A stretch of DNA of 13,219 nucleotides from contig JAGVHM010000092.1 of the NCBI GenBank assembly GCA_020056545.1, forward strand, positions 1 to 13,219, read 5' to 3'. The notes beneath the pieces are model-generated. The model did not search any database. It was not told where the DNA came from and saw only the letters and a list, made by a program, of their open reading frames with translations. The DNA is from a bacterium. Lineage in GTDB: Bacteria; Desulfobacterota; Deferrimicrobia; Deferrimicrobiales; Deferrimicrobiaceae. Positions 973-13,219 of the stretch are shown one piece after another. The first letter of the stretch is position 1. Every line of letters begins with the position of its first letter. Both the position numbers and the translations under genes were made by a program.

Positions 973-1178
973 TACGGTAAACCGGACGCAGGGCGCAGCG
1001 GGGGAGTTCGAATTCTTGGCGGGAATAATCAGATTCGAACTCCGAGCCCGCCGCCGACCGAACAGGGAGGAAAAGGGCGACCTTGCGGAGCCCGACAGGC
1101 GGGCGAGGCGGCCGCAGGGGCCGATGGCGTGATCGCCGAGGCTCAGGCGGTCCACGGAGCGGCGTATTGAGCGCTAAG
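973..1178 (+). repeat. Copy 1 of a conserved ~200-nt intergenic element, candidate structured RNA
   Basis: This stretch recurs at 12741-12998 in the same orientation. By hand alignment positions 973-1166 match 12741-12935 with 14 mismatches and one single-base gap (about 92%), and the terminal GAGCGCTAAG (1169-1178) is also shared. Predicted helices: 1003-1014 with 1032-1043 (12 bp); 1046-1052 with 1098-1104 (7 bp); a hairpin 1073-1084 with a GCGA (GNRA) loop; 1119-1122 with 1140-1143, continued past a GAU/GA internal loop by 1126-1129 with 1134-1137; and a closing helix 984-987 with 1150-1153. It fills most of the selA-HNH gap and shows no coding signal. I do not recognise a described RNA family. 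The repeat is seen directly; the RNA role is inference. Confidence 0.93.

Positions 1179-12740: not shown

Positions 12741-13219
<479 letters not shown>

What the first reader, a model, noticed from the sequence alone, without database searches (positions are those of the whole stretch)
973..1178. Undescribed two-copy intergenic element, ~200 nt, between unrelated genes
Positions 973-1178 recur at 12741-12998, same strand, about 92% identical by hand count over ~194 aligned positions. Each copy fills a gap between genes with no shared function (selA/HNH and hslU/argB). I see no transposon ends, tRNA gene or ORF that explains it. Long GC-rich tracts are identical, notably 1052-1084, while changes cluster in one loop and in paired positions. 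This looks like a candidate new structured RNA or RNA-constrained dispersed repeat.
Basis: partly seen in the sequence, partly recalled or inferred. Interest (0 to 1): 0.85.

Follow-up and report, generated by a model that had tools for sequence, protein, structure and literature searches.

The report
Structured RNA element linked to tRNAs
The repeated 200-letter piece looks like a stray copy of a folded genetic element that elsewhere sits right behind tRNA genes in several bacterial phyla, between a reversed and a direct copy of that tRNA's tail, a design known so far from a repeat in E. coli.

Summary
The repeat is real: window 973-1166 and 12741-12935, 92.3% identical over 195 columns, no Rfam match at gathering. 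Its core (about 1044-1151) belongs to a structured element that elsewhere lies just downstream of tRNA and tmRNA genes, on their strand. A pattern of core letters alone gave 57 distinct matches in a collection of 84,980 species genomes; 40 lie within 200 nt 3' of a tRNA/tmRNA, none within 200 nt of one on the opposite strand. There the core stands between the reverse complement of the tRNA's T-arm and a copy of its T-loop-to-CCA end. The fold P1[P2[P3,P4]P5] is backed by compensatory changes and came out again in Spirochaetota. Hosts: Deltaproteobacteria-labelled MAGs, Omnitrophota, Spirochaetota. Similar cores occur at different tRNAs of one genome with arms fitting each tRNA, so the core seems to move and arms to be remade. 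The window copies ride in another short repeat, away from tRNAs. E. coli RtT has the same architecture, but the models do not match each other. Best reading: mobile, protein-less, RtT-like tRNA-tail RNA element. Transcription, function and mobilising enzyme are not shown.

The parts
973..1002 (+). left arm of the carrier (outer) repeat, CGGACGCAGGGCGCAGCGGG type
   Evidence: also found without the core in L009-L014, L019, L020
1003..1043 (+). T-arm palindrome: GGAGTTCGAAT (1003-1013), variable 19-nt loop, ATTCGAACTCC (1033-1043)
   Evidence: same T-arm letters as the tRNA-Arg copies L023 and L064
1044..1151 (+). structured core: P2 1046-1052/1098-1104; P3 1054-1059/1065-1070 with tandem G.A; P4 1075-1078/1090-1093; P5 1112-1114/1148-1150 with hairpin 1126-1129/1134-1137
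   Evidence: R2 match 1019-1160, 96.9 bits; helices, letters checked
1152..1173 (+). right arm of the carrier repeat (CCACGGAGCGGCGTAT...), standing where tRNA-linked copies have the tRNA tail
   Evidence: query 179-201
12741..12770 (+). second copy: left arm of the carrier repeat
12771..12811 (+). second copy: T-arm palindrome, other loop, one mismatch in the right arm (ATTTGAACTCC)
12812..12920 (+). second copy: structured core
   Evidence: R2 match 12802-12924, 96 bits
12921..12935 (+). second copy: right arm of the carrier repeat

Best explanation
The core is a small, protein-less mobile element of about 110 nt that works as a structured RNA and lives on the 3' side of tRNA and tmRNA genes. 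SHOWN: where it is tRNA-linked it lies on the tRNA's strand, between a reverse complement of that tRNA's T-arm and a direct copy of its T-loop-to-CCA end; these arms can pair as closing stem P1 around a conserved fold (P2 with P3 and P4, then P5); units also occur in tandem; similar cores occur behind different tRNAs of one genome. INFERRED: the core moves and the arms are copied from the new target at or after insertion; where it is transcribed, the copied tail gives the RNA a tRNA-like CCA end, as in the annotated E. coli rttR RNA; copies may also ride along when tRNA 3' halves are duplicated.
For: tRNA link with a core-only pattern: 40 of 57 distinct matches, none near an opposite-strand tRNA, background 1.7% in the same loci; with model R2, 110 of the 167 matches that have 240 nt upstream. 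Copied tail: in 24 of 34 records at least 22 of 24 nt match the own tRNA; the P1 right strand equals the host tRNA at 695 of 713 positions in 91 copies and the left strand pairs at 658 of those 695. Structure: 19 of 36 pairs with double changes in A1; 32 of 36 pairs and 533 double-change cells against a shuffle mean of 165 in A2; a fold of 22 Spirochaetota copies without a given structure returns the same helices, 25 of 31 pairs with double changes; the tandem G.A of P3 is replaced in 5 of 22 rows of A4; the two window copies differ by one compensatory P2 pair. Strand: G.T 43 against A.C 3 in A1, 79 against 17 in A2. Movement: nearest core in the same genome for 15 of 51 copies, shuffles mean 3.7, maximum 13; the same tRNA-Leu(caa) gene is followed by full, decayed or no element in different relatives. 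E. coli unit: reverse-complement tail, core, tail, in tandem; rttR ends at the copied CCA.
Against: No transcript was seen for any copy. In several loci a terminator-like hairpin, seen by eye, lies between tRNA and element, so read-through from the tRNA promoter may be rare there. Y1_Tnp and RVT_1 are not needed: three genomes with 7-11 matches lack both, so no mobilising enzyme is known. For 13 of 51 copies the nearest core is at the same tRNA of another genome (shuffle mean 2.7, maximum 11), so inheritance matters too, and some of the 15 same-genome pairs lie in one cluster. Folding as single-stranded DNA could explain the covariation as well. 65 of 177 distinct R2 matches have no tRNA called within 150 nt upstream. 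The RtT model matches none of 24 genomes, 16 of them of this family.
Confidence: 0.62

Rival explanations
1. Host-serving small RNA of tRNA operons (RtT-like regulator or processing product): kept by selection, not mobile; copies at several tRNAs arise by ordinary duplication.
For: Structure conserved across phyla; 13 of 51 nearest cores sit at the same tRNA of another genome. RtT is described as released from tRNA transcripts and tied to the stringent response (passages of PMC4986893 and PMC2965389).
Against: Patchy: 34 of 193 sampled genomes in the phylum of G059 and 15 of 198 in that of G062 (strict filters, so lower bounds); decayed or absent at the same tRNA in relatives; many different tRNA partners; displaced copies away from tRNAs.
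Confidence: 0.3
2. Single-stranded DNA hairpin recognised by a recombinase or transposase (integron attC-like or REP-like); the fold is selected as DNA.
For: The closing stem is an inverted repeat at a tRNA site; tandem G.A pairs are also stable in DNA (recalled); in composites the core is followed by TTCC or TCC (by eye).
Against: G.T far exceeds A.C on the tRNA strand, though G.T is also the milder DNA mismatch and the models allow G.U; Y1_Tnp is not required, although in Omnitrophota it is commoner with the element (19 of 20) than without (13 of 20). Integron integrase was not tested.
Confidence: 0.25
3. Remnants of integrative elements: the tRNA tail copies are attL/attR scars of tyrosine-integrase islands.
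For: The direct copy runs from T-loop to CCA as in many att sites (recalled); several loci have a tRNA 3' half starting near the anticodon before the element (by eye), one in a viral contig (L164); G009, G017, G021 and G022 share another kind of sequence after tRNA-Leu(caa).
Against: It explains neither the reverse-complement left arm nor the conserved fold, nor one core at many tRNA types. Ten ORFs tested in five such loci gave no tyrosine-integrase match; one (L140:2814-3539) is an rve/HTH transposase.
Confidence: 0.12
4. Plain local duplication in the window with no wider meaning.
For: Two copies lie on one contig.
Against: Copies in many genomes and several phyla.
Confidence: 0.01

Closest known systems
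RtT RNA (Rfam RF00391; rttR at the E. coli tyrV/tyrT locus)
   Same: Tandem units 3' of a tRNA; each has a reverse complement of the tRNA tail (GGGGAAGGAT), a core and a direct copy of the tRNA 3' end to CCA; annotated rttR ends at that CCA. It holds a CUCGAGC-N4-GCGAGAG hairpin like our P3 and, with helices that I imposed, takes the same helix order 2.2 kcal/mol above its own optimum.
   Different: No RtT match at E 1 in the 16 element-bearing loci given, while RtT matched 4 times in L233 in the same call; RF00391 matches 0 of 24 genomes, 16 of them of this family; our R2 does not match the E. coli locus at E 10.
REP/BIME palindromic repeats
   Same: Short, dispersed, protein-less structured repeats; the window copies resemble these.
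   Different: Not tied to tRNA ends; no multi-helix core (recalled).
Theta ribozymes (HDV-like, tRNA-associated, of phages; PMC10879173, search listing only)
   Same: Structured RNA associated with tRNA genes.
   Different: No Rfam ribozyme match in the window; no tRNA tail copy known there (recalled).
tRNA-site integrative elements with att duplications
   Same: Direct copy of T-loop to CCA (recalled).
   Different: Unit of about 140-210 nt without genes, with an inverted left copy and a conserved fold.

Membership tests
RtT (RF00391) | match to the Rfam covariance model | tested here: not met
   positive control: L233 matched 4 times and E. coli rang
RtT (RF00391) | units 3' of a tRNA, ending in a copy of the tRNA 3' end, also in tandem | tested here: met
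   not met in the window copies themselves
RtT (RF00391) | discrete RNA released from the tRNA transcript | not testable with these tools
   no transcript data
Integron attC | R'/R'' boxes and an integron integrase | not tested
   no integrase search was run
REP/RAYT-type repeat | Y1 transposase in the genome | tested here: inconclusive
   Y1_Tnp in 25 of 35 genomes with the element and 19 of 40 without
Retroelement | reverse transcriptase in the genome | tested here: not met
   RVT_1 in 10 of 35 with the element and 12 of 40 without, at E 1e-5; other RT families and trans supply not tested
tRNA gene | ARAGORN or Rfam tRNA match in the window | tested here: not met

The most novel reading that the evidence does not exclude
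A bacterial counterpart of tRNA-linked SINEs: a cross-phylum, protein-less RNA element that jumps between tRNA genes and rebuilds both closing arms from the 3' end of whichever tRNA it lands behind, so that its RNA ends like a tRNA. RtT of E. coli would be a divergent member.
Probability: 0.3. Interest if true: 0.92.

Novelty: new variant of a known kind. Interest (0 to 1): 0.78.

Why it matters
The E. coli tyrT repeats have been known for decades (recalled) with an unclear role. Their design, a core closed by an inverted and a direct copy of the neighbouring tRNA's tail, is found here in distant phyla, at many tRNAs and at tmRNA, with a fold backed by compensatory change. That makes the question of what RtT-like repeats do, and how they spread, testable by comparison, and it predicts CCA-ended small RNAs in organisms where I know of none annotated.

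Tried and rejected
Rejected: a two-copy local duplication or chance; a known Rfam family; reverse transcriptase or Y1 transposase as an obligate partner in the same genome. No support found for a phage or plasmid origin: no blastn match in either collection, two matches in viral contigs with one pattern and none with another. Tried without result: deciding whether the left arm follows the tail copy or the tRNA where they differ (18 of 713 positions, some through mis-registration); a tyrosine integrase beside truncated tRNA pieces; the G015 locus with four tRNA-Leu 3' pieces (one R2 match, partly masked); a prior description in print (eight searches; open-licence PMC only).

Limits. Loci were fetched for only part of the matches listed, and searches were given 82 and 78 sources, not every locus held. 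A2 and A3 are fitted to the models; A1 and A4 are plain MAFFT, but A4's rows were chosen by model R2. A1 holds 24 of the 34 records: six dropped by name (L028, L036, L052, L054, L067, L068), four for length. In one search the tail match of L052, of one L065 record and of L058 comes from a later unit or tRNA, and some other tRNAs score as high as the own one because Ser tRNAs share tails. The list of composites was made by hand. One search saw the element in one family only; searches find other phyla.

Full report
OBSERVATION. Window 973-1166 and 12741-12935 are 92.3% identical over 195 columns on the same strand. No tRNA gene is called in the window. Rfam gives nothing at gathering and only a chance-level match at E 7.7 in 940-1230. 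The plus strand of 973-1178 folds better than shuffles (z -2.65), the minus strand less so (z -1.45). Of the 12 differences in 973-1120, six are in the loop 1014-1032, and 1046 G to A with 1104 C to T is a compensatory change in P2.

MORE COPIES. The own genome (G000, 1.14 Mb, 61.7% complete) has 20 BLAST matches, of three kinds: full-length copies like the window's, core-only copies, and short copies in which query 1-32 and 179-201 lie next to each other. Of 40 genomes (own included) 17 match, all among the 24 genomes of one family, none of the 16 others. Model R1 finds 21 of 24 in the family and 0 of 35 outside it, with strict filters.

HOME. In relatives most fetched core-only copies lie behind a tRNA gene on the same strand. 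Left of the core stands the reverse complement of that tRNA's T-arm; right of it a copy of the same tRNA from T-loop to CCA. In 24 of 34 records at least 22 of 24 nt of the tail match the own tRNA, while other tRNAs give means of about 14-19 (three of the 24 matches come from a later unit or tRNA, and five of the 34 records have 17 or fewer, by decay, masking or contig end). In 91 tRNA-linked copies the right closing strand equals the host tRNA at 695 of 713 positions, and the left strand pairs at 658 of the 695. In L090 the inverted arm is a 21-nt exact reverse complement of the tRNA tail.

TEST OF THE tRNA LINK WITHOUT T-ARM LETTERS. Models R1 and R2 contain T-arm letters, so I used a pattern from core letters only. 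Over 84,980 species genomes it found 54 stretches with 57 distinct matches; 40 lie within 200 nt downstream of a tRNA or tmRNA on the same strand and none has one on the opposite strand within 200 nt, while such positions make up 1.7% of those loci. The 17 others include five window-type composites, matches near contig ends, tandem members, truncated tRNA pieces, a masked stretch and L145, which has no R1 match and looks like chance. With R2, 110 of 167 matches with 240 nt upstream have a same-strand tRNA/tmRNA within 150 nt; none of 177 has an opposite-strand one. Of the 177 distinct matches 112 have one; the other 65 are 16 window-type composites, 19 tandem followers and 30 others, several of which follow a truncated tRNA 3' piece by eye.

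SPREAD. R2 matches 34 of 193 sampled genomes in the phylum of G059, whose record is an Omnitrophota chromosome, and 15 of 198 in the phylum of G062, a Spirochaetaceae record. One Spirochaetota genome has the length published for Spirochaeta caldaria, so a cultured host probably exists. tmRNA genes carry it too. Arrays occur, for example five matches spaced 173-212 bp after tRNA-Glu in G004.

FOLD. A MAFFT alignment of 24 tRNA-linked copies gives 36 pairs, 19 with changes on both sides. In 74 matches (73 distinct) fitted to R1, 93.1% of cells pair, 32 of 36 pairs show double changes, and there are 533 such cells against 165 in shuffles and 52-99 when slid. Twenty-two Spirochaetota copies, aligned by MAFFT and folded without a given structure, return P1 to P5 with 25 of 31 pairs doubly changed; the rows had been chosen by R2. 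P3 carries two adjacent G.A pairs that 5 of these 22 rows replace, four of them by two standard Watson-Crick pairs and one by G.T with C.G. G.T exceeds A.C on the tRNA strand, 43 to 3 and 79 to 17, which favours that strand and RNA; the models allow G.U, so this is supportive only.

MOVEMENT. For 51 tRNA-linked copies of the family the most similar core is in the same genome for 15 (shuffles: mean 3.7, maximum 13); for 13 it is at the same tRNA of another genome (mean 2.7, maximum 11). Thus cores look both inherited and spread. In G006 the cores behind tRNA-Leu(cag) and tRNA-Glu(ttc) are 91% identical while their arms fit Leu and Glu. Some of the 15 are neighbours in one cluster (G007). For tRNA-Leu(caa), found in 16 of 24 family genomes (synteny not checked), I read up to 300 nt downstream in 15: full elements in G002, G008 (tail cut by the contig end) and G010; decayed ones in G004, G006, G007, G016 and G018; none seen in G005, G014 and G020; another kind of sequence in G009, G017, G021 and G022. 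G009, G014 and G017 end after 93-121 nt.

THE WINDOW COPIES. Sixteen composites in G000, G001 and G003 follow one plan, with variations and two cut by contig ends: a carrier repeat CGGACGCAGGGCGCAGCGGGG...GGAGCGGCGTATGG, split by GGAGTTCGAAT, a variable loop of about 19 nt, ATTCGAACTCC and the core. The carrier occurs without the core in L009-L014, L019 and L020. The T-arm letters are those of tRNA-Arg copies (L023, L064). The window copies lack the right strand of P1; their T-arm halves can pair with each other instead.

COMPARISON WITH RtT. The E. coli locus (L233) has three tandem units after tRNA-Tyr with the same order: reverse-complement tail, core, tail to CCA. Annotated rttR ends at the copied CCA. 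Two papers mention RtT as a product of tRNA operons with a possible role in the stringent response (passages of PMC4986893 and PMC2965389); the original 1991 paper is not held. The cores do not match by model in either direction. A shared helix order, imposed by me, costs RtT 2.2 kcal/mol. I therefore claim 'works like', not 'is a member of', RtT.

MECHANISM. Shown: location, arms, fold, tandem units, similar cores at different tRNAs. Inferred: RNA synthesis, CCA-end maturation, and copying of arms from the target. Possible routes are hairpin copying on the target or insertion into a palindrome; neither was tested. Y1 transposase is present in 6 of 15 (Spirochaetota) and 19 of 20 (Omnitrophota) genomes with the element and in 6 of 20 and 13 of 20 without. 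Reverse transcriptase (RVT_1) is present in 5 of 15 and 5 of 20 with, and 6 of 20 and 6 of 20 without. Neither is required: G437, G462 and G186, with 10, 7 and 11 matches, lack both.

PRINT. Eight paper searches listed no description of a cross-phylum family; they cover open-licence PMC only.

Noticed in passing
L009-L014, L019, L020 (G000) and window 973-1002/1152-1173: Carrier repeat of about 140 bp with imperfect inverted ends CGGACGCAGGGC...GCCCGGAGTCCG, several copies lying near contig ends; present without the core.
   Followed up: partly
L102, L044, L091, L034, L104, L105, L140, L176; L164 (viral contig): Elements preceded, by eye, by a tRNA 3' half (mostly tRNA-Leu) that starts near the anticodon, as if a tRNA-site island had duplicated tail, terminator and element together.
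   Followed up: partly
L048, L054, L066, L071, L072, L075: A second module (about GCCCCACTCCC...GCTCCCTGGGGTACCCCG...GGGGTAA) inserted in the right half of the core at one spot.
   Followed up: no
L082, L086, L140, L160: A terminator-like hairpin between tRNA-Leu and the element is the centre of a palindrome that runs on through CCA into the inverted arm, suggesting an inverted duplication around the terminator.
   Followed up: no
G015:C1:1776077-1781962 (L260): Four tRNA-Leu(caa) 3' pieces (57 nt each) within 6 kb, one followed by a core; parts of the stretch are masked.
   Followed up: partly
L080, L090, L216, L220, L223: Small SRP RNA genes lie in the same short loci as element-bearing tRNA-Ser genes.
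   Followed up: no
L110, L114, L141, L153, L157 (JAENIX); L140; L160: Records labelled Actinomycetota, Acidobacteria and Armatimonadetes carry cores of the Deltaproteobacteria-family type; mislabelled or mixed bins are possible.
   Followed up: no
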